From Lamellibrachia columna (lineage: Eukaryota > Annelida > Polychaeta > Sabellida > Siboglinidae), in assembly GCA_963662155.1 (NCBI GenBank), contig OY759263.1:39990544-40054543 (forward strand): a stretch of DNA of 64,000 nucleotides, read 5' to 3'. The notes beneath the pieces are model-generated. The model did no database searches. It was not told the DNA's origin and saw only the letters and a program-made list of their open reading frames with translations. Each line of letters begins with the position of its first letter. Position 1 is the first letter of the stretch. Of the stretch, positions 1 through 35,066 are shown one piece after another. Position numbers and translations under genes: made by a program.

Positions 1-3000
1 AGTGTTACCTGACACAAACAGCTGAGAGACTGTTACCTGACTCAAACAGCTGAGAGGCTGTTACCTGACACAAACAGCTGAGAGAGTGTTACCTGACACA
101 AACAGCTGAGAGGCTGTTACCTGACTCAAACAGCTGAGAGACTGTTACCTGACTCAAACAGCTGAGAGGCTGTTACCTGACACAAACAGCTGAGAGACTG
201 TTACCTGACATAAACAGCTGAGAGGCTGTTACCTGACACAAACAGTTGAGAGGCTGTTACCTGACTCAAACAGCTGAGAGACTGTTACCTGACTCAAACA
301 GTTGAGAGGCTGTTACCTGACACAAACAGCTGAGAAACTGTTACCTGACATAAACAGCTGAGAGGCTGTTACATGACTCAAACAGCTGAGAGACTGTTAC
401 CTGACTCAAACAGCTGAGAGGCTGTTACCTGACACAAACAGCTGAGAGACTGTTACCTGACATAAACAGCTGAGAGGCTGTTACCTGACTCAAACAGCTG
501 AGAGACTGTTACCTGAATCAAACAGCTGAGAGGCTGTTACCTGACACAAACAGCTGAGAGATTGTTACCTGACATAAACAGCTGAGAGGCTGTTACCTGA
601 CTCAAACAGCTGAGAGACTGTAACCTGACACAAACAGCTGAGAGACTGTTACCTGACACAAACAGCTGAGAGGCTGTTACCTGACTCAAACAGCTGAGAG
701 ACTGTTACCTGACTCAAACAGCTGAGAGGCTGTTACCTGACACAAACAGCTGAGAAACTGTTACCTGACTCAAACAGTTGAGAGACTGTTACCCGACTCA
801 AACAGCTGAGAGATTGTTACCTGACACAAACAGCTGAGAGAGTGTTACCTGACACAAACAGCTGAGAGAGTGTTAACTGATATAAACAGCTGAGAGACTG
901 TTACCTGACACAAACAGCTGAGAGAGTGTTACCTGACACAAACAGCTGAGAGGCTGTTACCTGACTCAAACAGCTGAGACGCTGTTACCTGACTCAAACA
1001 GCTGAGAGACTGTTACCTGACTCAAACAGCTGAGAGGCTGTTACCTGACACAAACAGCTGAGAAACTGTTACCTGACTCAAACAGCTGACAGAGTGTTAC
1101 CTGACACAAACAGCTGAGAGGCTGTTACCTGACTCAAACAGCTGAGAGGCTTTTACCTGACTCAAACAGCTGAGAGACTGTTACCTGATTCAAACAGCTG
1201 AGAGGCTGTTACCTGACACAAACAGCTGAGAAACTGTTACCTGAGTCAAACAGCTGAGAGAGTGTTACCTGACACAAACAGCTGAGAGAGTGTTACCTGA
1301 TATAAACAGCTGAGAGACTGTTACCTGACACAAACAGCTGAGAGAGTGTTACCTGATATAAACAGCTGAGAGAGTGTTACCTGACACAAACAGCTGAGAG
1401 AGTGTTACCTGATATAAACAGCTGAGAGACTGTTACCTGACATAAACAGCTGAGAGACTGTTACCTGATATAAACAGTTGAGAGACTGTTACCTGACACA
1501 AACAGATGAGAGAGTGTTACCTGATATAAACAGCTGAGAAAGTGTTAACTGATATAAATAGCTGAGAGACTGTTACCTGACACAAACAGATGAGAGAGTG
1601 TTACCTGATATAAACAGATGAGAGAGTGTTACCTGATATAAATAGCTGAGAGACTGTTACCTGACATAAACAGCTGAGAGAGTGTTACCTGACATAAACA
1701 GCTGAGAGAGTGTTACCTGACACAAACAGTTGAGAGAGTGTTACCTGACACAAACAGATGAGAGAGTGTTACCTGATATAAACAGCTGAGAGAGTGTTAC
1801 CTGACATAAACAGATGAGAGAGTGTTACCTGATATAAACAGCTGAGAGAGTGTTACCTGACATAAACAGATGAGAGAGTGTTACCTAACACAAACAGCTG
1901 AGAGAGTGTTACCTGACATAAACAGATGAGAGAGTGTTACCTGATATAAACAGCTGAGAGAGTGTTACCTGACATAAACAGATGAGAGAGTGTTACCTAA
2001 CACAAACAGTTGAGAGAGTGTTACCTGACACAAACAGATGAGAGAGTGTTACCTGATATAAACAGCTGAGAGAGTGTTACCTGACATAAACAGATGAGAG
2101 ACTGTTACTTGACACAAACAGCTGAGAGGCTGTTACATGACTCAAACAGCTGAGAGACTGTTACCTGACTCAAACAGCTGAGAGGCTGTTACTTGACACA
2201 AACAGCTGAGAGACTGTTACCTGACATAAACAGCTGAGAGGCTGTTACCTGACTCAAACAGCTGAGAGACTGTTACCTGAATCAAACAGCTGAGAGGCTG
2301 TTACCTGACACAAACAGCTGAGAGATTGTTACCTGACATAAACAGCTGAGAGGCTGTTACCTGACTCAAACAGCTGAGAGACTGTAACCTGACACAAACA
2401 GCTGAGAGACTGTTACCTGACACAAACAGCTGAGAGGCTGTTACCTGACTCAAACAGCTGAGAGACTGTTACCTGACTCAAACAGCTGAGAGGCTGTTAC
2501 CTGACACAAACAGCTGAGAAACTGTTACCTGACTCAAACAGTTGAGAGACTGTTACCCGACTCAAACAGCTGAGAGAGTGTTACCTGACACAAACAGCTG
2601 AGAGAGTGTTACCTGACACAAACAGCTGAGAGAGTGTTAACTGATATAAACAGCTGAGAGACTGTTACCTGACACAAACAGCTGAGAGAGTGTTACCTGA
2701 CACAAACAGCTGAGAGGCTGTTACCTGACTCAAACAGCTGAGACGCTGTTACCTGACTCAAACAGCTGAGAGACTGTTACCTGACTCAAACAGCTGAGAG
2801 GCTGTTACCTGACACAAACAGCTGAGAAACTGTTACCTGACTCAAACAGCTGACAGAGTGTTACCTGACACAAACAGCTGAGAGGCTGTTACCTGACTCA
2901 AACAGCTGAGAGGCTTTTACCTGACTCAAACAGCTGAGAGACTGTTACCTGATTCAAACAGCTGAGAGGCTGTTACCTGACACAAACAGCTGAGAAACTG

Positions 3001-6000
3001 TTACCTGAGTCAAACAGCTGAGAGAGTGTTACCTGACACAAACAGCTGAGAGAGTGTTACCTGATATAAACAGCTGAGAGACTGTTACCTGACACAAACA
3101 GCTGAGAGAGTGTTACCTGATATAAACAGCTGAGAGAGTGTTACCTGACACAAACAGCTGAGAGAGTGTTACCTGATATAAACAGCTGAGAGACTGTTAC
3201 CTGACATAAACAGCTGAGAGACTGTTACCTGATATAAACAGTTGAGAGACTGTTACCTGACACAAACAGATGAGAGAGTGTTACCTGATATAAACAGCTG
3301 AGAAAGTGTTAACTGATATAAATAGCTGAGAGACTGTTACCTGACACAAACAGATGAGAGAGTGTTACCTGATATAAACAGATGAGAGAGTGTTACCTGA
3401 TATAAATAGCTGAGAGACTGTTACCTGACATAAACAGCTGAGAGAGTGTTACCTGACATAAACAGCTGAGAGAGTGTTACCTGACACAAACAGTTGAGAG
3501 AGTGTTACCTGACACAAACAGATGAGAGAGTGTTACCTGATATAAACAGCTGAGAGAGTGTTACCTGACATAAACAGATGAGAGAGTGTTACCTGATATA
3601 AACAGCTGAGAGAGTGTTACCTGACATAAACAGATGAGAGAGTGTTACCTAACACAAACAGCTGAGAGAGTGTTACCTGACATAAACAGATGAGAGAGTG
3701 TTACCTGATATAAACAGCTGAGAGAGTGTTACCTGACATAAACAGATGAGAGAGTGTTACCTGATATAAACAGCTGAGAGAGTGTTACCTGACATAAACA
3801 GATGAGAGAGTGTTACCTAACACAAACAGCTGAGAGAGTGTTACCTGACATAAACAGATGAGAGAGTGTTACCTGATATAAACAGCTGAGAGAGTGTTAC
3901 CTGACATAAACAGATGAGAGAGTGTTACCTAACACAAACAGTTGAGAGAGTGTTACCTGACACAAACAGATGAGAGAGTGTTACCTGATATAAACAGCTG
4001 AGAGAGTGTTACCTGACATAAACAGATGAGAGACTGTTACTTGACACAAACAGATGAGAGACTGTTACCTGATATAAACAGCTGAGAGGCTGTTACCTGA
4101 CTCAAACAGCTGAGAGACTGTAACCTGACACAAACAGCTGAGAGACTGTTACCTGACACAAACAGCTGAGAGGCAGTTACCTGACACAAACAGCTGAGAG
4201 GCTGTTACCTGACTCAAACAGCTGAGAGACTGTTACCTGACTCAAACAGCTGAGAGGCTGTTACCTGACTCAAACAGCTGAGAGACTGTAACCTGACTCA
4301 AACAGCTGAGAGACTGTAACCTGACACAAACAGCTGAGAGGCTGTTACCTGACACAAACAGCTGAGAGGCTGTTACCTGACTCAAACAGCTGAGAGACTG
4401 TTACCTGACTCAAACAGCTGAGAGGCTGTTACCTGACACAAACAGCTGAGAAACTGTTACCTGACTCAAACAGCTGAGAAACTGTTACCTGACTCAAACA
4501 GCTGAGAGAGTGTTACCTGACACAAACAGCTGAGAGAGTGTTACCTGACACAAACAGCCGAGAGACTGTTACCTGACTCAAACAGCTGAGAGGCTGTTAC
4601 CTGACACAAACAGCTGAGAGAGTGTTACCTGACACAAACAGCTGAGAGGCTGTTACCTGACTCAAACAGCTGAGAGACTGTTACCTGACTCAAACAGCTG
4701 AGAGGCTGTTACCTGACACAAACAGCTGAGAGACTGTTACCTGACATAAACAGCTGAGAGGCTGTTACCTGACACAAACAGTTGAGAGGCTGTTACCTGA
4801 CTCAAACAGCTGAGAGACTGTTACCTGACTCAAACAGTTGAGAGGCTGTTACCTGACACAAACAGCTGAGAAACTGTTACCTGACATAAACAGCTGAGAG
4901 GCTGTTACATGACTCAAACAGCTGAGAGACTGTTACCTGACTCAAACAGCTGAGAGGCTGTTACCTGACACAAACAGCTGAGAGACTGTTACCTGACATA
5001 AACAGCTGAGAGGCTGTTACCTGACTCAAACAGCTGAGAGACTGTTACCTGACTCAAACAGCTGAGAGGCTGTTACTTGACACAAACAGCTGAGAGATTG
5101 TTACCTGACATAAACAGCTGAGAGGCTGTTACCTGACTCAAACAGCTGAGAGACTGTAACCTGAAACAAACAGCTGAGAGACTGTTACCTGACACAAACA
5201 GCTGAGAGGCTGTTACCTGACTCAAACAGCTGAGAGACTGTTACCTGACTCAAACAGCTGAGAGGCTGTTACCTGACACAAACAGCTGAGAAACTGTTAC
5301 CTGACTCAAACAGTTGAGAGACTGTTACCCGACTCAAACAGCTGAGAGAGTGTTACCTGACACAAACAGCTGAGAGAGTGTTACCTGACACAAACAGCTG
5401 AGAGAGTGTTAACTGATATAAACAGCTGAGAGACTGTTACCTGACACAAACAGCTGAGAGAGTGTTACCTGACACAAACAGCTGAGAGGCTGTTACCTGA
5501 CTCAAACAGCTGAGACGCTGTTACCTGACTCAAACAGCTGAGAGACTGTTACCTGACTCAAACAGCTGAGAGGCTGTTACCTGACACAAACAGCTGAGAA
5601 ACTGTTACCTGACTCAAACAGCTGACAGAGTGTTACCTGACACAAACAGCTGAGAGGCTGTTACCTGACTCAAACAGCTGAGAGGCTTTTACCTGACTCA
5701 AACAGCTGAGAGACTGTTACCTGATTCAAACAGCTGAGAGGCTGTTACCTGACACAAACAGCTGAGAAACTGTTACCTGACTCAAACAGCTGAGAGAGTG
5801 TTACCTGACACAAACAGCTGAGAGAGTGTTACCTGATATAAACAGCTGAGAGACTGTTACCTGACACAAACAGCTGAGAGAGTGTTACCTGATATAAACA
5901 GCTGAGAGAGTGTTACCTGACACAAACAGCTGAGAGAGTGTTACCTGATATAAACAGCTGAGAGACTGTTACCTGACATAAACAGCTGAGAGACTGTTAC

Positions 6001-9000
6001 CTGATATAAACAGTTGAGAGACTGTTACCTGACACAAACAGATGAGAGAGTGTTACCTGATATAAACAGCTGAGAAAGTGTTAACTGATATAAATAGCTG
6101 AGAGACTGTTACCTGACACAAACAGATGAGAGAGTGTTACCTGATATAAACAGATGAGAGAGTGTTACCTGATATAAATAGCTGAGAGACTGTTACCTGA
6201 CATAAACAGCTGAGAGAGTGTTACCTGACATAAACAGCTGAGAGAGTGTTACCTGACACAAACAGTTGAGAGAGTGTTACCTGACACAAACAGATGAGAG
6301 AGTGTTACCTGATATAAACAGCTGAGAGAGTGTTACCTGACATAAACAGATGAGAGAGTGTTACCTGACACAAACAGATGAGAGAGTGTTACCTGATATA
6401 AACAGCTGAGAGAGTGTTACCTGACACAAACAGCTGAGAGAGTGTTACCTGACACAAACAGATGAGAGAATGTTACCTGACATAAACAGCTGATAGAGTG
6501 TTACCTGACACAAACAGATGAGAGAGTGTTACCTGATATAAACAGATGAGAGAGTGTTACCTGTTATAAACAGCTGAGAGATTGTTACCTGACATAAACA
6601 GCTGAGAGACTGTTACCTGACATAAACAGCTGAGAGAGTGTTACCTGATTCAAACAACTGAGAGAGTGTTACCTGATATAAACAGCTGAGAGAGTGTTAC
6701 CTGACACAAACAGCTGAGATAGTGTTACCTGATATAAACAGATGAGAGAGTGTTACTTGATATAAATATCTGAGAGAGGGTTACCTGACATAAACAGCTG
6801 AGAGAGTGTTACCTGACACAAATAGATGAGAGAATGTTACCTGACATAAACAGCTGAGAGAGTGTTACCTGATATAAACAGTTGAGAGATTGTTACCTGA
6901 TACAAACAGATGAGAGAGTGTTACCTGATATAAACAGATGAGAGAGTGTTACCTGATATAAACAGCTGGGAGACTGTTACCTGACATAAACAGCTGAGAG
7001 ATTGTTACCTGACATAAACAGCTGAGAGAGTGTTACCTGATATAAACAGCTGAGAGAGTGTTACCTGATATAAACAGCTGAGAGACTGTTACCTGACATA
7101 AACACCTGAGAGAGTGTTACCTGATATAAACAGCTGAGAGAGTGTTACCTGACACAAACAGCTGAGAGAGTGTTACCTGACATAAACAGCTGAGAGAGTG
7201 TTACCTGATATAAACAGTTGAGAGATTGTTACCTGACACAAACAGATGAGAGAGTGTTACCTGATATAAACAGATGAGAGAGTATTACCTGATATAAACA
7301 GCTGAAAGAATGTTACCTGACATAAACAGCTGAGAGACTGTTACCTGACATAAACAGCTGAGAGAGTGTTACCTGATTTAAACAACTGAGAGAGTGTTAC
7401 CTGATATAAACAGCTGAGAGAGTGTTACCTGACACAAACAGCTGAGAGAGTGTTACCTGATATAAACAGATGAGAGAGTGTTACCTGATATAAACATCTG
7501 AGAGAGTGTTACCTGACACAAACAGCTGAGAGAGTGTTACCTGATATAAACAGCTGAGAGAGTGTTACCTGACACAAACAGCTGAGAGAGTGTTACCTGA
7601 TATAAACAGCTGAGAGACTGTTACCTGACATAAACAGCTGAGAGACTGTTACCTGATATAAACAGTTGAGAGACTGTTACCTGACACAAACAGATGAGAG
7701 AGTGTTACCTGATATAAACAGCTGAGAAAGTGTTAACTGATATAAATAGCTGAGAGACTGTTACCTGACACAAACAGATGAGAGAGTGTTACCTGATATA
7801 AACAGATGAGAGAGTGTTACCTGATATAAATAGCTGAGAGACTGTTACCTGACATAAACAGCTGAGAGAGTGTTACCTGACATAAACAGCTGAGAGAGTG
7901 TTACCTGACACAAACAGTTGAGAGAGTGTTACCTGACACAAACAGATGAGAGAGTGTTACCTGATATAAACAGCTGAGAGAGTGTTACCTGACATAAACA
8001 GATGAGAGAGTGTTACCTGACACAAACAGATGAGAGAGTGTTACCTGATATAAACAGCTGAGAGAGTGTTACCTGACACAAACAGCTGAGAGAGTGTTAC
8101 CTGACACAAACAGATGAGAGAATGTTACCTGACATAAACAGCTGATAGAGTGTTACCTGACACAAACAGATGAGAGAGTGTTACTTGACATAAACAGCTG
8201 AGAGAGTGTTACCTGATATAAACAGCTGAGAGAGTGTTACCTGATATAAACAGCTGAGAGACTGTTACCTGACATAAACAGCTGAGAGAGTGTTACCTGA
8301 TATAAACAGCTGAGAGAGTGTTACCTGACACAAACAGCTGAGAGAGTGTTACCTGACATAAACAGCTGAGAGAGTGTTACCTGATATAAACACTTGAGAG
8401 ATTGTTACTTGACACAAACAGATGAGAGAGTGTTACCTGATATAAACAGATGAGAGAGTGTTACCTGTTATAAACAGCTGAGAGATTGTTACCTGACATA
8501 AACAGCTGAGAGACTGTTACCTGACATAAACAGCTGAGAGAGTGTTACCTGATTCAAACAACTGAGAGAGTGTTACCTGATATAAACAGCTGAGAGAGTG
8601 TTACCTGACACAAATAGATGAGAGAATGTTACCTGACATAAACAGCTGAGAGAGTGTTACCTGATATAAACAGTTGAGAGATTGTTACCTGACACAAACA
8701 GATGAGAGAGTGTTACCTGATATAAACAGATGAGAGAGTGTTACCTGATATAAACAGCTGGGAGACTGTTACCTGACATAAACAGCTGAGAGATTGTTAC
8801 CTGACATAAACAGCTGAGAGAGTGTTACCTGATATAAACAGCTGAGAGAGTGTTACCTGATATAAACAGCTGAGAGACTGTTACCTGACATAAACACCTG
8901 AGAGAGTGTTACCTGATATAAACAGCTGAGAGAGTGTTACCTGACACAAACAGCTGAGAGAGTGTTACCTGACATAAACAGCTGAGAGAGTGTTACCTGA

Positions 9001-12000
9001 TATAAACAGTTGAGAGATTGTTACCTGACACAAACAGATGAGAGAGTGTTACCTGATATAAACAGATGAGAGAGTATTACCTGATATAAACAGCTGAAAG
9101 ACTGTTACCTGACATAAACAGCTGAGAGACTGTTACCTGACATAAACAGCTGAGAGAGTGTTACCTGATTTAAACAACTGAGAGAGTGTTACCTGATATA
9201 AACAGCTGAGAGAGTGTTACCTGACACAAACAGCTGAGAGAGTGTTACCTGATATAAACAGATGAGAGAGTGTTACCTGATATAAACATCTGAGAGAGTG
9301 TTACCTGACACAAACAGCTGAGAGAGTATTACCTGACACAAACAGATGAGAGAATGTTACCTGGCATAAACAGCTGAGAGAGTGTTACCTGATATAAACA
9401 GTTGAGAGACTGTTACCTGACACAAACAGATGAGAGAGTGTTACCTGATATAAACAGCTGAGAGAGTTTTACCTGACTCAAACAGATGAGAGAGTGTTAC
9501 CTGATATAAACAGCTAAGAGAGTGTTACCTGATACAAACAGCTGAGAGAATGTTACCTGATATAAACAGATGAGAGAGTGTTACCTGATATAAACAGTTG
9601 AGAGACTGTTACCTGACACAAACAGATGAGAGAGTATTACCTAATATAAACAGCTGAGAGAGCATTACCTGACTCAAACAGCTGAGAGAGTATTACCTGA
9701 CACAAACAGATGAGAGAGTGTTACCTGACACAAACAGCTGAGAGAGTGTTACCTGATACAAACAGCTGAGAGAGTGTTACCTGACACAAACAGCTGAGAG
9801 AGTGTTACCTGACATAAACAGCTGAGAGAGTGTTACTTGATATAAACAGTTAAGATATTGTTACCTGACACAAACAGATGAGAGAGTGTTACCTGATATA
9901 AACAGCTGAGAGAGTGTTACCTGACACAAACAGCTGAGAGAGTGTTACCTGACATAAACATATAAGAGAGTGTTACCTGACATAAACAGCTGAGAGAGTG
10001 TTACCTGATATAAACAGTTGAGAGACTGTTACCTGACACAAACAGATGAGAGAATGTTACCTGATATAAACAGCTGAGAGAGTATTACCTGACACAAACA
10101 GATGAGAGAGTGTTACCTGATATAAACAGCTGAGAGAGTGTTACCTGACTCAAACAGCTGAGAGACTGTTACCTGACATAAACAGCTGAGAGAGTGTTAC
10201 CTGATATAAACAGCTGAGAGAGTGTTACCTGACACAAACAGCTGAGAGAGTGTTACCTGACATAAACAGCTGAGAGAGTGTTACCTGATATAAACAGTTG
10301 AGAGATTGTTACCTGACACAAACAGATGAGAGAGTGTTACCTGACACAAACAGATGAGAGAGTATTACCTGATATAAACAGCTGAGAGAGTGTTACCTGA
10401 CTCAAACAGCTGAGAGAGTGTTACCTGACACAAACAGATGAGAGAGTATTACCTGATATAAACAGCTGAGAGAGTGTTACTGATACAAACAGCTAAGAGA
10501 GTGTTACCTGATACAAACAGCTAAGAGAGTGTTACTGATACAAACAGATGAGAGAGTGTTACCTGATATAAACAGCTAAGAGAGTGTTACCTGATACAAA
10601 CAGCTAAGAGAGTGTTACCTGATACAAACAGATGAGAGACTGTTACCTGATACAAACAGCTAAGAGAGTGTTACCTGATATAAACAGCTGAGAGACTGTT
10701 ACCTGACATAAACAGCTGAGAGACTGTTACCTGACATAAACAGCTGAGAGAGTGTTATCTGATTCAAACAGCTGAGAGAGTGTTACCTGATAAAAACAGC
10801 TGAGAGAGTGTTACCTGACACAAACAGCTGAGAGAGTGTTACCTGATATAAACAGATGAGAGAGTGTTACCTGATATAAACAGCTGAGAGAGTGTTACCT
10901 GATACAAATAGCTGAGAGACTGTTACCTGATATAAACAGCTCAGAGAGTGTTACCTGACATAAACAGCTGAGACAGTGTTACCTGACATAAACAGCTAAG
11001 AGACTGTTACCTGACATAAACAGCTGAGAGAGTGTTACCTGACTCAAACAGCTGAGAGAGGGTTACCTGACTCAAACAGATGAGAGAGTGTTACCTGATA
11101 TAAACAGCTAAGAGAGTGTTACCTGATACAAACAGCTGAGAGAATGTTACCTGATATAAACAGATGAGAGAGTGTTACCTGATATAAACAGCTGAGAGAG
11201 AGTTACCTGACTCAAACAGCTGAGAGAGTATTACCTGACACAAACAGATGAGAGATTGTTACCTGACACAAACAGATGAGAGAGTGTTACCTGATATAAA
11301 CAGATGAGAGAGTGTTACCTGATATAAACAGCTGAGAGACTGTTACCTGACATAAACAGCTGAGAGACTGTTACCTGACATAAACAGCTGAGAGAGTGTT
11401 ACCTGATTCAAACAACTGAGAGAGTGTTACCTGATATAAACAGCTGAGAGAGTGTTACCTGACACAAACAGCTGAGAGAGTGTTACCTGATATAAATAGA
11501 TGAGAGAGTGTTACCTGATATAAACATCTGAGAGAGTGTTACCTGACACAAACAGCTGAGAGAGTATTACTTGACACAAACAGATGAGAGAATGTTACCT
11601 GACATAAACAGCTGAGAGAGTGTTACCTGATATAAACAGTTGAGAGACTGTTACCTGACACAAACAGATGAGAGAGTGTTACCTGATATAAACAGGTGTG
11701 AGAGTTTTACCTGACTCAAACAGATGAGAGAGTGTTACCTGATATAAACAGCTAAGAGAGTGTTACCTGATACAAACAGTTGAGAGACTGTTACCTGACA
11801 CAAACAGATGAGAGAGTATTACCTTATATAAACAGCTGAGAGAGCATTACCTGACTCAAACAGCTGAGAGAGTATTACCTGACACAAACAGATGAGAGAG
11901 TGTTACCTGACACAAACAGCTGAGAGAGTGTTACCTGACACAAACAGCTGAGAGAGTGTTACCTGACACACACAGCTGAGAGAGTGTTACCTGACATAAA

Positions 12001-21000: not shown

Positions 21001-24000
21001 CTGACATAAACAGCTGAGAGAGTGTTACCTTATTCAAACAACTGAGAGAGTGTTACCTGATATAAACAGCTGAGAGAGTGTTACCTGACACAAACAGCTG
21101 AGAGAGTGTTACCTGATATAAACAGATGAGAGAGTGTTACTTGATATAAACATCTGAGAGAGTGTTACCTGACACAAACAGCTGAGAGAGTATTACCTGA
21201 CACAAACAGATGAGAGAATGTTACCTGGCATAAACAGCTGAGAGAGTGTTACCTGATATAAACAGTTGAGAGACTGTTACCTGACACAAACAGATGAGAG
21301 AGTGTTACCTGATATAAACAGCTGAGAGAGTTTTACCTGACTCAAACAGATGAGAGAGTGTTACCTGATATAAACAGCTAAGAGAGTGTTACCTGATACA
21401 AACAGCTGAGAGAATGTTACCTGATATAAACAGATGAGAGAGTGTTACCTGATATAAACAGTTGAGAGACTGTTACCTGACATAAACAGCTGAGAGACTG
21501 TTACCTGACATAAACAGCTGAGAGAGTGTTATCTGATTCAAACAGCTGAGAGAGTGTTACCTGATAAAAACAGCTGAGAGAGTGTTACCTGATATAAACA
21601 GCTCAGAGAGTGTTACCTGATATAAACAGATGAAAGAGTGTTACCTGATATAAACAGCTGAGAGAGTGTTACCTGACATAAATAGCTGAGAGACTGTTAC
21701 CTGATATAAACAGCTGAGAGAGTGTTACCTGACATAAACAGCTGAGACAGTGTTACCTGATATAAACAGCTGAGAGACTGTTTCCTGACATAAACAGCTA
21801 AGAGACTGTTACCTGACATAAACAGCTGAGAGAGTGTTACCTGACTCAAACAGCTGAGAGAGGGTTACCTGACTCAAACAGATGAGAGAGTGTTACCTGA
21901 TATAAACAGCTAAGAGAGTGTTACCTGATACAAACAGCTGAGAGAATGTTACCTGATATAAACAGATGAGAGAGTGTTACCTGATATAAACAGCTGAGAG
22001 AGTGTTACCTGACTCAAACAGCTGAGAGAGTATTACCTGACACAAACAGATGAGAGATTGTTACCTGACACAAACAGATGAGAGAGTGTTACCTGATATA
22101 AACAGATGAGAGAGTGTTACCTGATATAAACAGCTGAGAGACTGTTACCTGACATAAACAACTGAGAGACTGTTACCTGACATAAACAGCTGAGAGAGTG
22201 TTACCTGATTCAAACAACTGAGAGAGTGTTACCTGATATAAACAGCTGAGAGAGTGTTACCTGACACAAACAGCTGAGAGAGTGTTACCTGATATAAACA
22301 TCTGAGAGAGTGTTACCTGATATAAACATCTGAGAGAGTGTTACCTGACACAAACAGCTGAGAGAGTATTACCTGACACAAACAGATGAGAGAATGTTAC
22401 CTGACATAAACAGCTGAGAGAGTGTTACCTGATATAAACAGTTGAGAGACTGTTACTTGACACAAACAGATGAGAGAGTGTTACCTGATATAAACAGGTG
22501 TGAGAGTTTTACCTGACTCAAACAGATGAGAGAGTGTTACCTGATATAAACAGCTAAGAGAGTGTTACCTGATACAAACAGTTGAGAGACTCTTACCTGA
22601 CACAAACAGATGAGAGAGTATTACCTGATATAAACAGCTGAGAGAGTGTTACCTGACATAAACAACTGAGAGACTGTTACCTGACTTAAACAGCTGAGAG
22701 AGTGTTACCTGATTCAAACAACTGAGAGAGTGTTACCTGATATAAACATCTGAGAGAGTGTTACCTGACACAAACAGCTGAGAGAGTATTACCTGACACA
22801 AACAGATGAGAGACTCTTACCTGACACAAACAGATGAGAGAATGTTACCTGACATAAACAGCTGAGAGAGTGTTACCTGATATAAACAGCTGAGAGAGTG
22901 TTACCTGACACAAACAGCTGAGAGAGTGTTACCTGATATAAACATCTGAGAGAGTGTTACCTGATATAAACATCTGAGAGAGTGTTACCTGACACAAACA
23001 GCTGAGAGAGTATTACCTGACACAAACAGATGAGAGAATGTTACCTGACATAAACAGCTGAGAGAGTGTTACCTGATATAAACAGTTGAGAGACTGTTAC
23101 CTGACACAAACAGATGAGAGAGTTTTACCTGATATAAACAGGTGTGAGAGTTTTACCTGACTCAAACAGATGAGAGAGTGTTACCTGATATAAACAGCTA
23201 AGAGAGTGTTACCTGATACAAACAGTTGAGAGACTCTTACCTGACACAAACAGATGAGAGAGTATTACCTGATATAAACAGCTGAGAGAGCATTACCTGA
23301 CTCAAACAGCTGAGAGAGTATTACCTGACACAAACAGAAGAGAGAGTGTTACCTGACAAAAACAGATGAGAGAGTGTTACCTGATATAAACAGCTGAGAG
23401 AGTGTTACCTGATATAAACAGCTGAGAGAGTGTTACCTGATATAAACAGCTGAGAGAGTTTTCCCTGACACAAACAGCTGAGAGAGTGTTACCTGACACA
23501 AACAGATGAGAGAATGTTACCTGACATAAACAGCTGAGAGAGTGTTACCTGACACAAACAGATGAGAGAGAATTACCTGATATAAACAGCTGAGAGATTG
23601 TTACCTGACTCAAACAGCTGAGAGAGTGTTACCTGACACAAACAGATGAGAGAGTGTTACCTGATATAAACAGCTGAGAGAGTGTTACCTGACACAAACA
23701 GCTGAGAGAGTGTTACCTGACACAAACAGCTGAGAGAGTGTTACCTGACATAAACAGCTGAGAGAGTGTTACCTGATATAAACAGCTGATAGAGTGTTAC
23801 CTGATATAAATAGCTGAGAGAGTGTTACCTGACTCAAACAGCTGAGAGAGTGTTACCTGATATAAACAGATGAGAGAGTGTTACCTGACTCAAACAGCTG
23901 AGAGACTGTTACCTGACACAAACAGCTGAGAGAGTGTTACCTGATATAAACAGATGAGAGAGTGTTACCTGACACAAACAGATGAGAGACTGTTACCTGA

Positions 24001-24435
24001 CACAAACAGCTGAGAGAGTGTTACCTGACACAAACAGTTGAGAGAGTGTTACCTGACACAAACAGCTGAGAGACTGTTACCTGACATAAACAGCTGAGAG
24101 AGTGTTACCTGACACAAACAGTTGAGAGAGTGTTACCTGACACAAACAGCTGAGAGACTGTTACCTGACATAAACAGCTGAGAGACTGTAACCTGACACA
24201 AACAGCTGAGAGAGTGTTATCTGACATAAACAGCTGAGAGAGTGTTACCTGACATAAACAGCTGAGAGACTGTAACCTGACAGAAACAGCTGAGAGAGTA
24301 TTACCTGACACAAACAGCTGAGAGAGTATTACCTGACACAAACAGCTGAGAGACTTACCTGACACAAACAGCTGAGAGAGTGTTACCTGACACAAACAGC
24401 TGAGAGACTTACCTGACACAAACAGCTGAGAGAGT
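1..24435 (-). repeat. 28-bp tandem array (about 870 copies) made from the exon 6 donor junction; fills intron 6 and runs off the window
   Basis: The period is exactly 28 bp over most of the 24.4 kb. A typical plus-strand unit begins agtgttacctgacacaaac and ends agctgagag. Read on the transcribed minus strand, each unit is a copy of the last 23 nt of SLC12A8 exon 6 followed by GTAAC, so nearly every unit carries CAG|GTAACA, a candidate 5' splice site. The array joins the real exon end at 24413 without a break in periodicity. Common variants sit in the exon-derived part (gacacaaac, gactcaaac, gacataaac, gatataaac) and in the hexamer CAGCTG, CAGATG, CAGTTG or CAGCTA. A few units are shortened, for example near 24350-24410. 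The left edge is open at position 1, so intron 6 exceeds 24.4 kb. Long blocks recur at multiples of 28 bp. I found no other gene inside the array. Confidence 0.98.
24407..24412 (-). promoter_or_regulatory. Authentic 5' splice site of SLC12A8 exon 6 (CAG|GTAAGT)
   Basis: The minus strand reads GTCAG|GTAAGT, with the exon ending at 24413. This is a full-consensus donor, unlike the GTAACA donors of most array units. Read-through meets TAA at once, because the split codon becomes AGG followed by TAA. A second CAG|GTAAGT lies 54 bp downstream (GTAAGT at 24353-24358). Using it would include the same stop codon. The full consensus is the visible sequence difference that could favour the true site over the array copies. 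Confidence 0.9.
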
Positions 24436-24614
24436 GCCAAATGGGATGCTTCGTGAAGGCTTTTTGAGGTCGCCACTCATGTTGATGCCAGCAAACACCC
24501 CTGTTGCCGTGGGGAAGAACACCCCAAACACAGTGAAGAACGACTCTCCTTCTATGTAACTCGGCCCTGAGTTATTGGCAAACATCTTACTGCTATAGCC
24601 AACAAACCCATTCT
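24413..24614 (-). CDS. SLC12A8: SLC12A8 exon 6: extracellular loop and sixth membrane segment
   Basis: This 202-nt exon encodes residues 252 (split codon) to 318 plus two bases of codon 319. It enters in phase 1 and leaves in phase 2. The translation includes [17 protein letters not shown] and then [14 protein letters not shown] and [20 protein letters not shown]. This matches the TM5-TM6 loop and TM6 of SLC12 member 8, including the family block A-G-x-N-x-x-G-D-L followed by S-I-P. An N-N-S glycosylation sequon near residue 265 sits where vertebrate SLC12A8 has N-N-T. The acceptor is TTGCAG|AG and the donor is CAG|GTAAGT. The oddity is the surroundings: the first 36 nt of this exon is the seed of the 47-bp array upstream in the transcript, and the last 23 nt is the seed of the 28-bp array downstream. 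The family assignment is from recognition of conserved residues, not a search. Confidence 0.96.
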
Positions 24615-24630
24615 CTGCAACACAAAAAAA
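24615..24630 (-). promoter_or_regulatory. Authentic 3' splice site of SLC12A8 exon 6 (TTGTGTTGCAG|AG)
   Basis: The minus strand reads TTTTTTTGTGTTGCAG, with the exon beginning at 24614. A run of seven T lies just upstream of TGTGTTGCAG. Most array units instead carry TTGTGGTTCAG or TTGTGTTGTAG in the same position. The T run is a feature of this copy and may help it be chosen over the roughly 220 upstream copies. That preference is inference. Confidence 0.88.
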
Positions 24631-27600
24631 TGTTTTACTGCCATAGCCAATAAACCCATTCTCTGAACCCCAACAACCATCTTACTTTCATAGCCAACAA
24701 ACCCATTCTCTGAACCACAACAACCATCTTACTGTCATAGCCAACAAACCCATTCTCTGAACCACAACAAACATCTTACTGTCATAGCCAACAAACCCAT
24801 TCTCTGAACCACAACAAACGTCTTACTGCCATAGCCAACAAACCCATTTTCTACAACACAACAAACATCTTACTGCCATAGCCAACAAACCCATTCTGTA
24901 CAACACAACAAACATGTTACTGCATAGCCAACAAACCCATTCTCTGAACCACAACAAACGTCTGACTGCCATAGCCAACAAACCCATTCTCTGAACCACA
25001 ACAAACGTCTTACTGCCATAGCCAACAAACCCATTCTCTACAACACAACAAACATCTTACTGCCATAGCCAACAAACCCATTATGTACAACACAACAAAC
25101 ATCTTACTGCCATAGCCAACAAACCCATTCTCTACAACACAACAAACATCTTACTGCCATAGCCAACAAACCCATTCTCTACAACACAACAAACATCTTA
25201 CTGCCATAACCAACAAACCCATTCTCTACAACACAACAAACATCTTACTGCCATAGCCAACAAATCCATTCTCTACAACACAACAAACATCTTACTGCCA
25301 TAGCCAACAAACCCATTCTCTACAACACAACAAATGTTTTACTGCCATAGCCAACAAACCCATTCTCTACAACACAACAAACATCTTACTGCCATAGCCA
25401 ACAAACCCATTCTCTACAACACAACAAACATCTTACTGCCATAGCCAACAAACCCATTCTCTACAACACAACAAACGTCTTACTGCCATAGCCAACAAAC
25501 CCATTCTCTACAACACAACAAACATCTTACTGCCATAGCCAACAAACCCATTCTCTACAACACAACAAACATCTTACTTCCATAGCCAACAAACCCATTC
25601 TCTACAACACAACAAACATCTTACTGCCATAGCCAACAAACCCATTCTCTACAACACAACAAACATCTTACTGCCATAGCCAACAAACCCATTCTCTACA
25701 ACACAACAAACTTCTTACTGCCATAGCCAACAAACCCATTCTCTACAACACAACACATGTTTTACTGCCATAGCCAATAAACCCATTCTCTACAACACAA
25801 CAAACGTCTTACTGCCATAGCCATTCTCTGAACCTAAACAAACGTCTTACTACCATAGCCAACAAACCCATTCTATACAACACAACAAACATCTTACTGC
25901 CATAGCCAACAAACCCATTCTCTGAACCACAACAAACGTCTTACTGCCATAGCCAACAAACCCATTCTCTGAACCAAAACAAACATCTTACTGCCATAGC
26001 CAACAAACCCATTCTCTGAACCTAAACAAACGTCTTACTGCCATAGCCAACAAACCCATTCTATACAACACAACAAACATCTTACTGCCATAGCCAACAA
26101 ACCCATTCTCAGAACCACAACAAACATCTTACTGCCACAGCCAACAAACCCATTCTCTGAACCACAACAAACATCTTACTGCCACAGCCAACAAACCCAT
26201 TCTCTGAACCACAACAAACATCTTACTGCCATAGCCAACAAACCCATTCTCTGAACCACAACAAACATCTTACTGTCATAGCCAACAAACCCATTCTCTG
26301 AAACACAACAAACATCTTACTGCCACAGCCAACAAACCCATTCTCTGAACCACAACAAACATCTTACTGCCATAGCCAACAAACTCATTCTCTACAACAC
26401 AACAAACATCTTACTGCCATAGCCAACAAACCCATTCTCTACAACACAACAAACGTCTTACTGCCATTGCTAACAAACCCATTTTCTGAACCACAACAAA
26501 CATCTTACTACCATAGCTAACAAACCCATTCTCTGAACCACAACAAACATCTTACTGCCATAGTCAACAAACCCATACTCTGAACCACAACAAACGTCTT
26601 GCTGCCATAGCGAACAAGCCCATTCTCTGAACCACAATAAATGTCTTACTGCCATAGTCAACAAACCCATTCTCTTAACCACAACAAATGCCTTACTGCC
26701 ATTGCTAACAAACCCATTTTCTGAACCACAACAAACATCTTACTGCCATAGCCAACAAACCCATTCTCTGAACCACAACAAACATCTTACTGCCATTGCT
26801 AACAAACCCATTTTCTGAACCACAACAAACATCTTACTGCCATAGCCAACAAATCCATTCTCTGAACCACAACAAACATCTTACTTCCATTGCTAACAAA
26901 CCCATTTTCTGAACCACAACAAACATCTTACTACCATAGCTAACAAACCCATTCTCTGAACCACAACAAACATCTTACTGTCATAGCCAACAAACCCGTT
27001 CTTTGAACCACAACAAACATCTTACTGCCATAGCCAACAAACCCATTCTCTGAACCACAGCAAACATCTTACTGCCACAGCCAACAAACCCATTCTTTGA
27101 ACCACAACAAACATCTTACTGTCACAGCCAACAAACCCATTCTTTGAACCACAACAAACATCTTACTGTCATAGCCAACAAACCCGTTCTCTGAACCTCA
27201 ACAAACATCTTACTGCCATAGCCAACAAACCCATTCTCTGAACCACAACAAACATCTTACTGCCACAGCCAACAAACCCATTCTCTGAACCACAACAAAT
27301 GTCTTACTGTCATAGCCAACAAACTCATTCTCTGAACCACAACAAACGTCTTACCACCGTAGCCAACAAATCCATTCTCTGAACCACAACAAACATCTTA
27401 CTGCCATAGCCAACAAACCCATTCTATGAAGCACAGCAAACGTCTTACTGCCATAGCCAACAAACCCATTCTATGAAGCACAGCAAACGTCTTACGGCCA
27501 TAGCCAAGAAACCCATTCAATACAACGCAACAAACGTCTTACTGCCACAGCCAAGAAACCCATTCTCTACAACACAACAAACGACTTACTGCCACAGCCA

Positions 27601-30600
27601 AGAAACCCATTCTCTACAACACAACAAACGACTTACTGCCATAGCCAACAAACCCATTCTCTACAACACAACAAACATCTTACTGCCATAGCCAACAAAC
27701 CCATTCTCTACAACACAACAAACATCTTACTGCCATAACCAACAAACCCATTCTCTACAACACAACAAACATCTTACTGCCATAGCCAACAAATCCATTC
27801 TCTACAACACAACAAACATCTTACTGCCATAGCCAACAAACCCATTCTCTACAACACAACAAATGTTTTACTGCCATAGCCAACAAACCCATTCTCTACA
27901 ACACAACAAACATCTTACTGCCATAGCCAACAAACCCATTCTCTACAACACAACAAACGTCTTACTGCCATAGCCAACAAACCCATTCTCTACAACACAA
28001 CAAACATCTTACTGCCATAGCCAACAAACCCATTCTCTACAACACAACAAACATCTTACTGCCATAGCCAACAAACCCATTCTCTACAACACAACAAACA
28101 TCTTACTGCCATAGCCAACAAACCCATTCTCTACAACACAACAAACATCTTACTGCCATAGCCAACAAACCCATTCTCTACAACACAACAAATGTTTTAC
28201 TGCCATAGCTAATAAACCCATTCTCTACAACACAACAAACGTCTTACTTCCATAGCCATTCTCTGAACCTAAACAAACGTCTTACTGCCATAGCCAACAA
28301 ACCCATTCTATACAACACAACAAACATTTTACTGCCATAGCCAACAAACCCATTCTCTGAACCAAAACAAACATCTTACTGCCATAGCCAACAAACCCAT
28401 TCTTTGAACCTAAACAAACGTCTTACTGCCATAGCCAACAAACCCATTCTATACAACACAACAAACATCTTACTGCCATAGCCAACAAACCCATTCTCAG
28501 AACCACAACAAACATCTTACTGCCACAGCCAACAAACCCATTCTCTGAACCACAACAAACATCTTACTGCCATAGTCAACAAACCCATACTCTGAACCAC
28601 AACAAACGTCTTGCTGCCATAGCGAACAAGCCCATTCTCTGAACCACAATAAATGTCTTACTGCCATAGTCAACAAACCCATTCTCTTAACCACAACAAA
28701 TGCCTTACTGCCATTGCTAACAAACCCATTTTCTGAACCACAACAAACATCTTACTGCCATAGCCAACAAACCCATTCTCTGAACCACAACAAACATCTT
28801 ACTGCCATTGCTAACAAACCCATTTTCTGAACCACAACAAACATCTTACTGCCATAGCCAACAAATCCATTCTCTGAACCACAACAAACATCTTACTGCC
28901 ATTGCTAACAAACCCATTTTCTGAACCACAACAAACATCTTACTACCATAGCTAACAAACCCATTCTCTGAACCACAACAAACATCTTACTGCCTTAGCC
29001 AACAAACCCATTCTCTGAACCACAACAAACATCTTACTGTCATAGCCAACAAACCCGTTCTCTGAACCACAACAAACATCTTACTGCCATAGCCAACAAA
29101 TCCATTCTCTACAACACAACAAATGTTTTACTGCCATAGCCAACAAACCCATTCTCTACAACACAACAAACATCTTACTGCCACAGCCAACAAACCCATT
29201 CTCTACAACACAACAAACGTCTTACTGCCATAGCCAACAAACCCATTCTCTACAACACAACAAACATCTTACTGCCATAGCCAACAAACCCATTCTCTAC
29301 AACACAACAAACATCTTACTGCCATAGCCAACAAACCCATTCTCTACAACACAACAAACATCTTACTGCCATAGCCAACAAACCCATTCTCTACAACACA
29401 ACAAACATCTTACTGCCATAGCCAACAAACCCATTCTCTACAACACAACAAATGTTTTACTGCCATAGCCAATAAACCCATTCTCTGATCCTAAACAAAC
29501 GTCTTACTGCCATAGCCAACAAACCCATTCTATACAACACAACAAACATCTTACTGCCATAGCCAACAAACCCATTCTCAGAACCACAACAAACATCTTA
29601 CTGCCACAGCCAACAAACCCATTCTCTGAACCACAACAAACATCTTACTGCCATAGTCAACAAACCCATACTCTGAACCACAACAAACGTCTTGCTGCCA
29701 TAGCGAACAAGCCCATTCTCTGAACCACAATAAATGTCTTACTGCCATAGTCAACAAACCCATTCTCTTAACCACAACAAATGCCTTACTGCCATTGCTA
29801 ACAAACCCATTTTCTGAACCACAACAAACATCTTACTGCCATAGCCAACAAACCCATTCTCTGAACCACAACAAACATCTTACTGCCATTGCTAACAAAC
29901 CCATTTTCTGAACCACAACAAACATCTTACTGCCACAGCCAACAAACCCATTCTTTGAAACACAACAAACATCTTACTGCCACAGCCAACAAACCCATTC
30001 TCTGAACCACAACAAACATCTTACTGCCATAGCCAACAAACCCATTCTCTGAACCACAACAAACATCTTACTGCCATAGCCAACAAATCCATTCTCTGAA
30101 CCACAACAAACATCTTACTGCCATAGCCAACAAACCCAATCTCTGAACCACAACAAACATCTTACTGCCATAGCCAACAAATCCATTCTCTGAACCACAA
30201 CAAACATCTTACTGTCATAGCCAACAAACCCGTTCTTTGAACCACAACAAACATCTTACTGCCACAGCCAACAAACCCATTCTCTGAACCACAATAAACA
30301 TCTTACTGCCATAGCCAACAAACCCATTCTCTGAACCACAACAAACATCTTACTGTCATAGCCAACAAACCCATTCTCTGAACCACAACAAACATCTTAC
30401 TGCAACAGCCAACAAACCCATTATTTGAACCACAACAAACATCTTACTGTCATAGCCAACAAACCCATTCTCTGAACCACAACAAACATCTTACTGCCAT
30501 AGCCAACAAACCCATTCTCTGAACCACAACAAACATCTTACTGCCATAGCCAACAAATCCATTCTCTGAACCACAACAAACATCTTACTGCCATTGCTAA

Positions 30601-33600
30601 CAAACCCATTTTCTGAACCACAACAAACATCTTACTACCATAGCTAACAAACCCATTCTCTGAACCACAACAAACATCTTACTGCCTTAGCCAACAAATC
30701 CATTCTCTGAACCACAACAAACATCTTACTGCCATTGCTAACAAACCCATTTTCTGAACCACAACAAACATCTTACTACCATAGCTAACAAACCCATTCT
30801 CTGAACCACAACAAACATCTTACTGCCTTAGCCAACAAACCCATTCTCTGAACCACAACAAACATCTTACTGTCATAGCCAACAAACCTGTTCTCTGAAC
30901 CACAACAAACATCTTACTGCCATAGCAAACAAACCCATTCTCTGAACCACAACAAACATCTTATTGCCACAGCCAACAAACCCATTCTTTGAACCACAAC
31001 AAACATCTTACTGTCACAGCCAACAAACCCATTCTTTGAACCACAACAAACATCTTACTGTCATAGCCAACAAACCCGTTCTCTGAACCTCAACAAACAT
31101 CTTACTGCCATAGCCAACAAACCCATTCTCTGAACCACAACAAACATCTTACTGCCATAGCCAACAAACCCATTCTCTGAACCACAACAAACATCTTACT
31201 GTCATAGCCAACAAACCCATTCTCTGAAACACAACAAACATCTTACTGCCACAGCCAACAAACCCATTCTCTGAACCACAACAAACATCTTACTGCCATA
31301 GCCAACAAACTCATTCTCTACAACACAACAAACATCTTACTGCCATAGCCAACAAACCCATTCTCTACAACACAACAAACGTCTTACTGCCATTGCTAAC
31401 AAACCCATTTTCTGAACCACAACAAACATCTTACTACCATAGCTAACAAACCCATTCTCTGAACCACAACAAACATCTTACTGCCATTGCTAACAAACCC
31501 ATTTTCTAAACCACAACAAACATCTTACTACCATAGCCAACAAACCCATTCTCTGAACCACAACAAATGTCTTACTGTCATAGCCAACAAACTCATTCTC
31601 TGAACCACAACAAACATCTTACCACCGTAGCCAACAAATCCATTCTCTGAACCACAACAAACATCTTACTGCCATAGCCAACAAACCCATTCTATGAAGC
31701 ACAGCAAACGTCTTTCTGCCATAGCCAACAAATCCATTCTATGAAGCACAGCAAACGTCTTACTGCCATAGCCAACAAACCCATTCACTACAACGCAACA
31801 AACGTCTTACTGCCACAGCCAACAAACCCATTCTCTGAACCACAACAAATGTCTTACTGTCATAGCCAACAAACTCATTCTCTGAACCACAACAAACGTC
31901 TTACCACCGTAGCCAACAAATCCATTCTCTGAACCACAACAAACATCTTACTGCCATAGCCAACAAACCCATTCTATGAAGCACAGCAAACGTCTTACTG
32001 CCATAGCCAACAAACCCATTCTATGAAGCACAGCAAAAGTCTTACTGCCATAGCCAACAAACCCATTCTATGAAGCACAGCAAACGTCTTACGGCCATAG
32101 CCAAGAAACCCATTCACTACAACGCAACAAACGTCTTACTGCCACAGCCAAGAAACCCATTCTCTACAACACAACAAACGACTTACTGCCATAGCGAACA
32201 AATACATTCTCTACAACACAACAAACATCTTACTGCCATAGCCAACAATCCCATTCTCTACAACACAACAAACACCTTACTGCCATAACCAACAAACCCA
32301 TTCTCTACAACACAACAAACATCTTACTGCCATAGCCAACAAATCCATTCTCTACAACACAACAAACGACTTACTGCCATAGCCAACAAACCCATTCTCT
32401 ACAACACAACAAATGTTTTACTGCCATAGCCAACAAACCCATTCTCTACAACACAACAAACATCTTACTGCCATAGCCAACAAACCCATTCTCTACAACA
32501 CAACAAACGTCTTACTGCCATAGCCAACAAACCCATTCTCTACAACACAACAAACATCTTACTGCCATAGCCAACAAACCCATTCTCTACAACACAACAA
32601 ACATCTTACTGCCATAGCCAACAAACCCATTCTCTACAACACAACAAACATCTTACTGCCATAGCCAACAAACCCATTCTCTACAACACAACAAACATCT
32701 TACTGCCATAGCCAACAAACCCATTCTCTACAACACAACAAATGTTTTACTGCCATAGCTAATAAACCCATTCTCTACAACACAACAAACGTCTTACTTC
32801 CATAGCCATTCTCTGAACCTAAACAAACGTCTTACTGCCATAGCCAACAAACCCATTCTATACAACACAACAAACATTTTACTGCCATAGCCAACAAACC
32901 CATTCTCTGAACCAAAACAAACATCTTACTGCCATAGCCAACAAACCCATTCTTTGAACCTAAACAAACGTCTTACTGCCATAGCCAACAAACCCATTCT
33001 ATACAACACAACAAACATCTTACTGCCATAGCCAACAAACCCATTCTCAGAACCACAACAAATATCTTACTGCCACAGCCAACAAACCCATTCTCTGAAC
33101 CACAACAAACATCTTACTGCCATAGTCAACAAACCCATACTCTGAACCACAACAAACGTCTTGCTGCCATAGCGAACAAGCCCATTCTCTGAACCACAAT
33201 AAATGTCTTACTGCCATAGTCAACAAACCCATTCTCTTAACCACAACAAATGCCTTACTGCCATTGCTAACAAACCCATTTTCTGAACCACAACAAACAT
33301 CTTACTGCCATAGCCAACAAACCCATTCTCTGAACCACAACAAACATCTTACTGCCATTGCTAACAAACCCATTTTCTGAACCACAACAAACATCTTACT
33401 GCCATAGCCAACAAATCCATTCTCTGAACCACAACAAACATCTTACTGCCATTGCTAACAAACCCATTTTCTGAACCACAACAAACATCTTACTACCATA
33501 GCTAACAAACCCATTCTCTGAACCACAACAAACATCTTACTGCCTTAGCCAACAAACCCATTCTCTGAACCACAACAAACATCTTACTGCCATTGCTAAC

Positions 33601-35066
33601 AAACCCATTTTCTGAACCACAACAAACATCTTACTGCCATAGCCAACAAATCCATTCTCTGAACCACAACAAACATCTTACTGCCATTGCTAACAAACCC
33701 ATTTTCTGAACCACAACAAACATCTTACTACCATAGCTAACAAACCCATTCTCTGAACCACAACAAACATCTTACTGCCTTAGCCAACAAACCCATTCTC
33801 TGAACCACAACAAACATCTTACTGTCATAGCCAACAAACCCGTTCTCTGAACCACAACAAACATCTTACTGCCATAGCCAACAAATCCATTCTCTACAAC
33901 ACAACAAATGTTTTACTGCCATAGCCAACAAACCCATTCTCTACAACACAACAAACATCTTACTGCCATAGCCAACAAACCCATTCTCTGAACCACAACA
34001 AACATCTTACTGTCATAGCCAACAAACCCGTTCTCTGAACCACAACAAACATCTTACTGCCATAGCCAACAAATCCATTCTCTACAACACAACAAATGTT
34101 TTACTGCCATAGCCAACAAACCCATTCTCTACAACACAACAAACATCTTACTGCCATAGCCAACAAACCCATTCTCTACAACACAACAAACATCTTACTG
34201 CCATAGCCAACAAACCCATTCTCTACAACACAACAAACATCTTACTGCCATAGCCAACAAACCCATTCTCTACAACACAACAAATGTTTTACTGCCATAG
34301 CCAATAAACCCATTCTCTGATCCTAAACAAACGTCTTACTGCCATAGCCAACAAACCCATTCTATACAACACAACAAACATCTTACTGCCATAGCCAACA
34401 AACCCATTCTCAGAACCACAACAAACATCTTACTGCCACAGCCAACAAACCCATTCTCTGAACCACAACAAACATCTTACTGCCATAGTCAACAAACCCA
34501 TACTCTGAACCACAACAAACGTCTTGCTGCCATAGCGAACAAGCCCATTCTCTGAACCACAATAAATGTCTTACTGCCATAGTCAACAAACCCATTCTCT
34601 TAACCACAACAAATGCCTTACTGCCATTGCTAACAAACCCATTTTCTGAACCACAACAAACATCTTACTGCCATAGCCAACAAACCCATTCTCTGAACCA
34701 CAACAAACATCTTACTGCCATTGCTAACAAACCCATTTTCTGAACCACAACAAACATCTTACTGCCACAGCCAACAAACCCATTCTTTGAACCACAACAA
34801 ACATCTTACTGCCACAGCCAACAAACCCATTCTCTGAACCACAACAAACATCTTACTGCCATAGCCAACAAACCCATTCTCTGAACCACAACAAACATCT
34901 TACTGCCATAGCCAACAAATCCATTCTCTGAACCACAACAAACATCTTACTGCCATAGCCAACAAACCCAATCTCTGAACCACAACAAACATCTTACTGC
35001 CATAGCCAACAAACCCACTCTCTGAACCACAATAAACATCTTACTGTCATAGCCAACAAACTCATT
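24615..35066 (-). repeat. 47-bp tandem array (about 220 copies) made from the exon 6 acceptor junction; fills 98% of intron 5
   Basis: On the plus strand the unit runs catcttactgccatagccaa, caaacccattctctgaacca, caacaaa (47 bp). On the transcribed strand this is 36 nt matching the start of exon 6 (AGAATGGGTTTGTTGGC through AAGATGTTTG) plus 11 nt ending in TTCAG or TTGTAG, a candidate acceptor. The real exon 6 start is the last unit of the array. Three unit families are visible: ctctgaaccac, ctctacaacac and ctatgaagcac. Some units are shorter, for example where ccatagccattctctgaacc lacks about 16 bp. The distal end is a unit at about 35040-35066, followed by only about 157 bp of unique intron before exon 5. 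Short open frames of 60 to 97 codons inside the array are translations of the repeat. Confidence 0.98.

What the first reader, a model, noticed from the sequence alone, without database searches (positions are those of the whole stretch)
1..35066. One 202-nt exon embedded between giant arrays of its own acceptor and its own donor
The two arrays are on opposite sides of one exon, have different periods (47 and 28 bp) and come from its opposite ends, so they are independent events. With the exon 3 array this makes three junction-derived arrays in one gene. All share a design: 23-36 nt of exon plus 5-11 nt of intron, always including the AG or GT. This suggests splice junctions here are preferred seeds for tandem duplication, or that such duplications are tolerated because the spliceosome can still choose one copy. 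I propose the term splice-junction minisatellite. I cannot tell by myself whether it has been described.
Basis: inference. Interest (0 to 1): 0.95.

Follow-up and report, generated by a model that had tools for sequence, protein, structure and literature searches.

The report
Giant splice-junction repeats ("mirages") in annelid
One exon of a transporter gene in a marine-worm genome sits between two huge tandem arrays copied from its own two splice sites; such splice-junction repeats were already known from lancelets ("mirages") and a few human genes, but here they are very large and turned up at about one in twelve of the exon ends sampled.

Summary
A 202-nt exon (24413-24614, minus strand) of an SLC12A8-like gene lies between a 47-bp array spanning its acceptor (24579-35069, ~224 copies) and a 28-bp array spanning its donor, which runs past the window to -12777 (37.2 kb, ~1,329 copies). 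Exon 3 carries a small third one. COX1 shows an annelid, nearest Siboglinidae. The class is known: "mirages" in amphioxus, and the human CBS VNTR is similar; these are new, extreme members. Only exon-proximal sites gave the full reading frame, one in-frame neighbour apart, among those tested; no RNA was available.

In 119 other exons (238 ends; myosin and kinase domains) I counted 20 junction-spanning arrays; one kinase exon has both. About 5.9 were expected from array density around this gene (Poisson P 4e-6); a within-sample test gives P 1e-4 to 0.03. So "junctions are preferred seeds" is supported, not proven: size limits were set after the first batch and only two gene families were sampled.

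The parts
24413..24614 (-). exon 6 of the SLC12A8-like gene, 202 nt, phase 1 in / phase 2 out
   Evidence: joins in frame to exons 5 and 7; joined protein aligns to hagfish SLC12A8 (P0010) at 64% over 335 aa without a gap
24579..35069 (-). acceptor-derived array: 47-bp unit = 11 nt intron end + 36 nt exon start; 24579-24614 is the exon's own start (exon-proximal copy)
   Evidence: TRF, 223.8 copies, 91% matches; 219 copies in register, AG intact in 185; the T7 tract and the GCAG acceptor occur once in the array, at the exon-proximal copy
1..24436 (-). donor-derived array: 28-bp unit = 23 nt exon end + 5 nt intron; 24413-24436 is the exon's own end. Continues left of the window to -12777 (37,214 bp, ~1,329 copies)
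   Evidence: 1,328 copies in register (the exon's own included), GT intact in 1,299, +5G in 7 (bulk GTAACA; exon-proximal GTAAGT)
36710..36901 (-). exon 3 (192 nt)
36879..37043 (-). exon 3 acceptor array, 30-bp unit = 7 nt intron + 23 nt exon
35224..35337 (-). exon 5 (114 nt); no array spans its junctions
35957..36074 (-). exon 4 (118 nt); no array spans its junctions
37250..37390 (-). exon 2 (141 nt); the 25-bp array 37404-37862 lies close by in the intron and does not span the junction
39287..39475 (-). exon 1 from its ATG (189 nt)

Best explanation
These are splice-junction minisatellites of the kind called 'mirages'. Step 1 (inferred): a short tandem duplication once covered the junction, copying some exon and some intron. 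Step 2 (supported by reading frame, not by RNA): the copy next to the exon body remains the working splice site, so every further copy is removed as intron and the mRNA is unchanged. Step 3 (inferred; partly supported): the array then grew by slippage or unequal exchange; in the acceptor array near copies are slightly more alike than distant ones and a block about 96 units (4.5 kb) long recurs, while the donor array is almost evenly alike throughout. Step 4 (statistical, two gene families): in this annelid genome such duplications are several times commoner at splice junctions than uniform seeding predicts, because splicing hides them from selection and probably also because junctions are favoured sites of duplication. 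In exon 6 the bulk copies are weaker splice sites than the exon-proximal one, which probably helped these two arrays grow so large.
For: Unit spans the junction on both sides. Exon-proximal joins give a gapless 335-aa alignment with hagfish SLC12A8; the four next donors tested (of about 1,327 further copies) all give a stop at codon 319, right after exon 6; of nine further acceptors tested (taken from 125 exact matches in the array, the exon's own included) eight give a stop 15-71 codons on, one (+48 nt) stays open. Donor bulk GTAACA vs exon-proximal GTAAGT; exon-proximal acceptor scores 12.5 against at most 8.7 in the 25 copies compared, and alone has the T7 tract. In-register copy identity: acceptor 0.920 at one unit, 0.886 at 15, peak 0.924 at 96; donor 0.913 at one unit, 0.900 at 1,200. 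Independent sample: 20 spanning arrays in 238 exon ends (10 of 120 myosin; 7 of 80 and 3 of 38 kinase) against 5.9 expected (P 3.9e-6). Sliding the junction into the intron: 20 at 0 nt, then 18, 17, 11, 8 at 10-40 nt (units of the same arrays still overlap), 4, 1, 3, 2, 0, 2 at 50-100 nt; long periods are harder to see there. Kinase exon L117 has both an acceptor and a donor array.
Against: No transcript data. The exon-proximal site is not generally the stronger one: in 20 cases (17 sampled arrays of the first two batches, exon 6 twice, exon 3) its score is above the copies' mean in 10, equal in 5, below in 5 (sign test P 0.30; the Wilcoxon P 0.02 of the same call is inflated because both exon 6 arrays lost register there). 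51 of 60 further copies in the small arrays keep AG/GT, so how the spliceosome chooses is open. The size limits (period 18-110, at least 2 copies, at least 5 nt exon) were fixed after the first batch. The within-sample test weakens to P 0.017-0.03 if the usable flank is taken 40 nt shorter. Background density comes from one 254-kb neighbourhood. An earlier reading, smooth decay of identity with distance, was an artefact of lost register and is withdrawn; confidence lowered slightly for that.
Confidence: 0.72

Rival explanations
1. Coincidence in a minisatellite-rich genome: arrays are seeded uniformly, and those that happen to cover a junction survive because splicing hides them; junctions are not special.
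For: 158 minisatellite loci cover 112.6 of 254 kb around the gene, so about 2.5% of exon ends should carry one by chance. The within-sample test is only P 0.017-0.03 under the most cautious flank used.
Against: 20 seen against 5.9 expected in 238 ends (P 3.9e-6); 20 at the junction against 0-4 at points 50-100 nt into the intron.
Confidence: 0.22
2. The copies do something: decoy splice sites tune exon 6 inclusion or send mis-spliced mRNA to decay, as the human CBS VNTR is reported to go with lower enzyme activity at higher repeat number.
For: Most copies keep the core dinucleotide (1,299 of 1,328 donors, 185 of 219 acceptors); the four alternative donors tested make an immediate stop; CBS activity falls with repeat number according to a passage of PMC5188458.
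Against: 34 of 219 acceptor copies have lost AG, and the acceptor's last G (0.868) is among the less conserved columns; in L062 the three further copies compared have all lost GT.
Confidence: 0.08
3. An older intronic array invaded the exon, or the exon boundary moved into the array.
For: None found.
Against: The exonic part of the unit is coding sequence shared with other animals for SLC12A8; in the sample it lies within matches to the kinase or myosin domain models.
Confidence: 0.03
4. Assembly artefact.
For: Long arrays are where assemblies fail; copy number may be wrong, and the 96-unit block repeat in the acceptor array could be an assembly duplication.
Against: Copies differ from one another (89-91% matches), and short arrays of the same kind, a few copies visible, occur in 19 other sampled exons.
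Confidence: 0.04

Closest known systems
Amphioxus 'mirages' (minisatellite-like tandem duplications of exon-intron boundaries; Adh3, globins BflGb6 and BflGb9, troponin C; similar duplications in PGBD5)
   Same: Tandem units spanning an acceptor or a donor; AG/GT in many but not all copies; regular splicing reported for Adh3 and the globins (passages of PMC3087553; PMC3902484).
   Different: Lancelets, not annelids; units of 150-160 bp in 3 or 6 copies (two haplotypes) in BflGb6 and 10-72 bp in Adh3. Here about 224 and 1,329 copies, both ends of one exon, and a measured frequency of 20 in 238 sampled exon ends.
Human CBS 31-bp VNTR at the exon 13-intron 13 boundary
   Same: Minisatellite at an exon-intron boundary (passages of PMC5188458 and PMC1395315).
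   Different: One short VNTR, described there as non-coding and linked to lower activity; the original paper was not read.
Human internal tandem repeats at exon-intron boundaries in segmental duplications (PMC2812944, passages)
   Same: Units of 30 bp on average, some at exon-intron boundaries, changing intron structure.
   Different: Half lie in coding exons; about 4 copies; the boundary cases are described as forming new introns.
Intron gain by duplication of AG/GT sites (Rogers model, as cited in PMC3087553)
   Same: Tandem duplication carrying splice signals.
   Different: Here introns have grown from their edges; no new intron position is shown.
Earthworm metallothionein first-intron minisatellites (PMC12783039, passages)
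   Same: Annelid; large minisatellite arrays in an intron.
   Different: The passages seen do not say that the repeats cross a splice junction.

Membership tests
mirage minisatellite | tandem repeat whose unit crosses an exon-intron boundary | tested here: met
mirage minisatellite | the authentic boundary lies next to the exon body, duplicates outside it (my wording of the figure legends) | tested here: met
mirage minisatellite | occurs at 5' and 3' boundaries | tested here: met
   sample 12 acceptor, 8 donor
mirage minisatellite | regular mRNA splicing not disturbed | not testable with these tools
   no RNA; reading frame agrees with exon-proximal use
mirage minisatellite | copy-number instability, allelic or somatic | not testable with these tools
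   one assembly, no reads
mirage minisatellite | reported host: cephalochordate (not strictly defining) | tested here: not met
   COX1 of contig C30: best named hit Siboglinidae 86%. ORFs that I read by eye as nad3, nad2, cox1 stand in this order; that this order is annelid-like is recalled
Rogers-type intron gain | a new intron at a new position within an exon | tested here: inconclusive
   gapless protein alignment; ancestral intron positions not compared
chromosomal satellite DNA | same unit found at unrelated places | not tested
   only a 143-nt piece of the exon outside the units was searched genome-wide, one hit; the units were not searched

The most novel reading that the evidence does not exclude
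In this annelid lineage splice junctions are true hotspots for tandem duplication: roughly one exon end in twelve carries an array seeded across it, several-fold above neutral expectation, so introns grow from their edges by copying their own splice sites, and the spliceosome picks the exon-proximal site by position rather than by strength.
Probability: 0.45. Interest if true: 0.82.

Novelty: new member of a known kind. Interest (0 to 1): 0.62.

Why it matters
It shows that boundary-spanning minisatellites are not a lancelet oddity: here they fill nearly all of two introns (about 48 kb) and, in an annelid genome, sit at about 8% of the exon ends sampled. If the excess at junctions holds genome-wide it points to a mutational process tied to splice junctions and gives a natural test of how a spliceosome chooses among hundreds of near-identical sites.

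Tried and rejected
Amphioxus as the source organism: considered after finding the mirage papers, rejected by COX1. 'The exon-proximal site is always the strongest' looked significant at first (P 0.008), but two junction positions were wrong (exon 3 and L048) and L071 was included; corrected it is 10 above, 5 equal, 5 below, so dropped as a rule. In one search the two exon 6 arrays lost register; their figures come. Batch three (L130, L136, L141) was not scored. Smooth decay of copy identity and absence of higher-order repeats were artefacts of fixed offsets; one search shows an almost flat donor array and a block repeat at 96 (and 138) units in the acceptor array. Searches missed most copies; redone. 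In-frame bias of acceptor periods: 8 of 11 multiples of three at first, 8 of 14 with the last batch (my arithmetic), dropped. Annotating the neighbourhood by coding score was started and not pursued. Rows not used: 17 of 77 myosin rows; 77 of 136 kinase rows (outside the interior-of-domain rule, or lower in rank; one more was dropped to shorten the request). Dropped before the within-sample test: L031 (18 bp, simple-sequence-like) and L071 (5 nt of exon, neither spanning nor not). In the automatic count 27 of 238 ends had no junction call, so the arrays of L114 and L131 fall out; L071 is in and L092 out; four junctions (L040, L048, L092, L116) were set by hand.

Full report
What is there. Two arrays flank one 202-nt exon, as reported. 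TRF gives 28 bp x 873 at 1-24436 and 47 bp x 224 at 24579-35069. Read on the minus strand, the 47-bp unit is 11 nt of intron end plus the first 36 nt of the exon, and the 28-bp unit is the last 23 nt of the exon plus GTAAC. Exon 3 has a small acceptor array, 7 nt intron plus 23 nt exon, 36879-37043. The left flank shows the donor array ending at -12777: 37,214 bp, about 1,329 copies. Exon 7 begins about 0.9 kb further, so some 37.2 of 38 kb of that intron, and about 10.45 of 10.6 kb of the upstream one, are array.

The gene. Translated exons match SLC12A8 of many animals (best named hit Bugula neritina, 58%). tblastn placed further exons left of the window. Nine exons joined at the exon-proximal sites give a protein that aligns to hagfish SLC12A8 at 64% over 335 aa with no gap.

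Which copy works. With each of the four next donors tested, of about 1,327 further copies, the frame hits a stop at codon 319, right after the exon. Of nine further acceptors tested, eight give a stop 15-71 codons on; the nearest (+48 nt) keeps an open frame and would add 16 residues. The exon-proximal donor is GTAAGT, the bulk GTAACA; G at +5 occurs in 7 of 1,328 copies, the exon's own included, and GT is intact in 1,299. Among 219 acceptor copies AG is intact in 185. The T7 tract and the GCAG acceptor occur once, at the exon-proximal copy. No RNA was available, so use of these sites is inferred.

Turnover. With copies kept in register, the acceptor array is 0.920 identical at one unit, 0.886 at 15, and peaks again at 96 units (0.924), a block repeat of about 4.5 kb; the donor array is almost flat, 0.913 at one unit and 0.900 at 1,200. 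This replaces an earlier fixed-offset result.

Organism. The genome has 879.7 Mb in 30 contigs. Contig C30 is the mitochondrial genome. Its COX1 is 86% identical to a Siboglinidae cluster and 94% to an unnamed ENA protein; most of the following named hits are annelids, with gastropods further down. So an annelid, probably siboglinid; the species is not known.

Already known. PMC3087553 (2010; [quoted passage not shown] PMC3902484 (passage) adds PGBD5 and troponin C. The 2002 Adh paper was not held. The human CBS 31-bp VNTR sits at an exon-intron boundary (passages), and human tandem repeats at exon-intron boundaries were surveyed in PMC2812944 (passages). Eight searches of the open library (listings seen) showed me no report of junction-spanning arrays in annelids; an earthworm paper has intronic minisatellites (PMC12783039, passages), and passages of the Ridgeia and Amynthas genome papers do not mention them. 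Subscription journals are mostly missing, so this is weak.

Are junctions special? Around the gene, 158 minisatellite loci cover 112.6 of 254 kb. Uniform seeding then predicts 0.0247 spanning arrays (period 18-110, at least 2 copies, at least 5 nt of exon) per exon end. I took exon matches by rank: the first 60 of 77 myosin-head rows, and 59 of 136 kinase rows, those interior to the domain. In 238 ends I counted 20 spanning arrays by eye: myosin 10 of 120 (donor L036, L041, L044, L047, L062, L064, L078; acceptor L040, L042, L048), kinase 7 of 80 (acceptor L090, L092, L102, L116, L117, L118; donor L117) and 3 of 38 (acceptor L130, L136, L141). In three donor cases (L041, L044, L047) the exonic part is only 5-7 nt. 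Not every match end is a junction; 211 of 238 had a junction call. Thirteen non-spanning arrays of the same size class lay in the same flanks. Expected 5.9, Poisson P 3.9e-6; a within-sample test correcting for visibility gives P 1e-4 over all periods, 6.8e-4 and 2.2e-3 for periods up to 60 and 45, and 0.017, 0.019 and 0.03 if flanks are taken 40 nt shorter. An automatic count found 20 spanning arrays, and 4, 1, 3, 2, 0, 2 at points 50, 60, 70, 80, 90, 100 nt into the intron. The size limits were set after the first batch, which gave 5 in 40 ends (P 0.0035 against the neighbourhood density); the remaining ends gave 15 in 198 (P 1.8e-4).

Mechanism. A duplication that covers a junction leaves the message unchanged if the exon-proximal copy is used, so it is hidden from selection; one wholly inside an exon is not. 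This explains survival but not an excess over ordinary intronic arrays, which are hidden too. The excess, if real, suggests that junctions are favoured places for the first duplication; which process (stalled replication or transcription, shared splice motifs as microhomology) is unknown. The idea that the working copy must be the strongest did not hold in the sample, although it fits exon 6.

Verdict. Observation confirmed; interpretation partly supported; known kind, new and extreme members; the frequency in this genome is the new part.

Noticed in passing
window -15128..-14762 (left of the window, in L006): SLC12A8 exon 8 (147 nt) is followed after 73 nt by a second exon of the same length and phase, 34-41% identical to the same stretch of other animals' proteins: a candidate pair of mutually exclusive exons.
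   Followed up: partly
L117 (G000:C9:2960105-2960603): A kinase exon with both a 105-bp acceptor-derived and a 35-bp donor-derived array: a second case of the window's design.
   Followed up: yes
L062 (G000:C1:70266832-70267297): Donor array in which the three further copies compared read GG instead of GT while the exon-proximal copy keeps GT.
   Followed up: partly
24579-35069: Within the acceptor array a block of about 96 units (4.5 kb) recurs: internal duplication or assembly repeat.
   Followed up: partly
window -39588..-24773: Three neighbouring arrays (32, 71, 59 bp) recur in the same order 8.3 kb away: a segmental duplication or an assembly repeat.
   Followed up: no
window -199999..64000: Minisatellites make up about 44% of the readable sequence.
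   Followed up: partly
47138-54585: A 7.4-kb, 61-bp array (122 copies) upstream of the gene, not linked to any exon I identified.
   Followed up: no
38410-39160: A 51-bp (17-codon) array in intron 1, open in one plus-strand frame.
   Followed up: no
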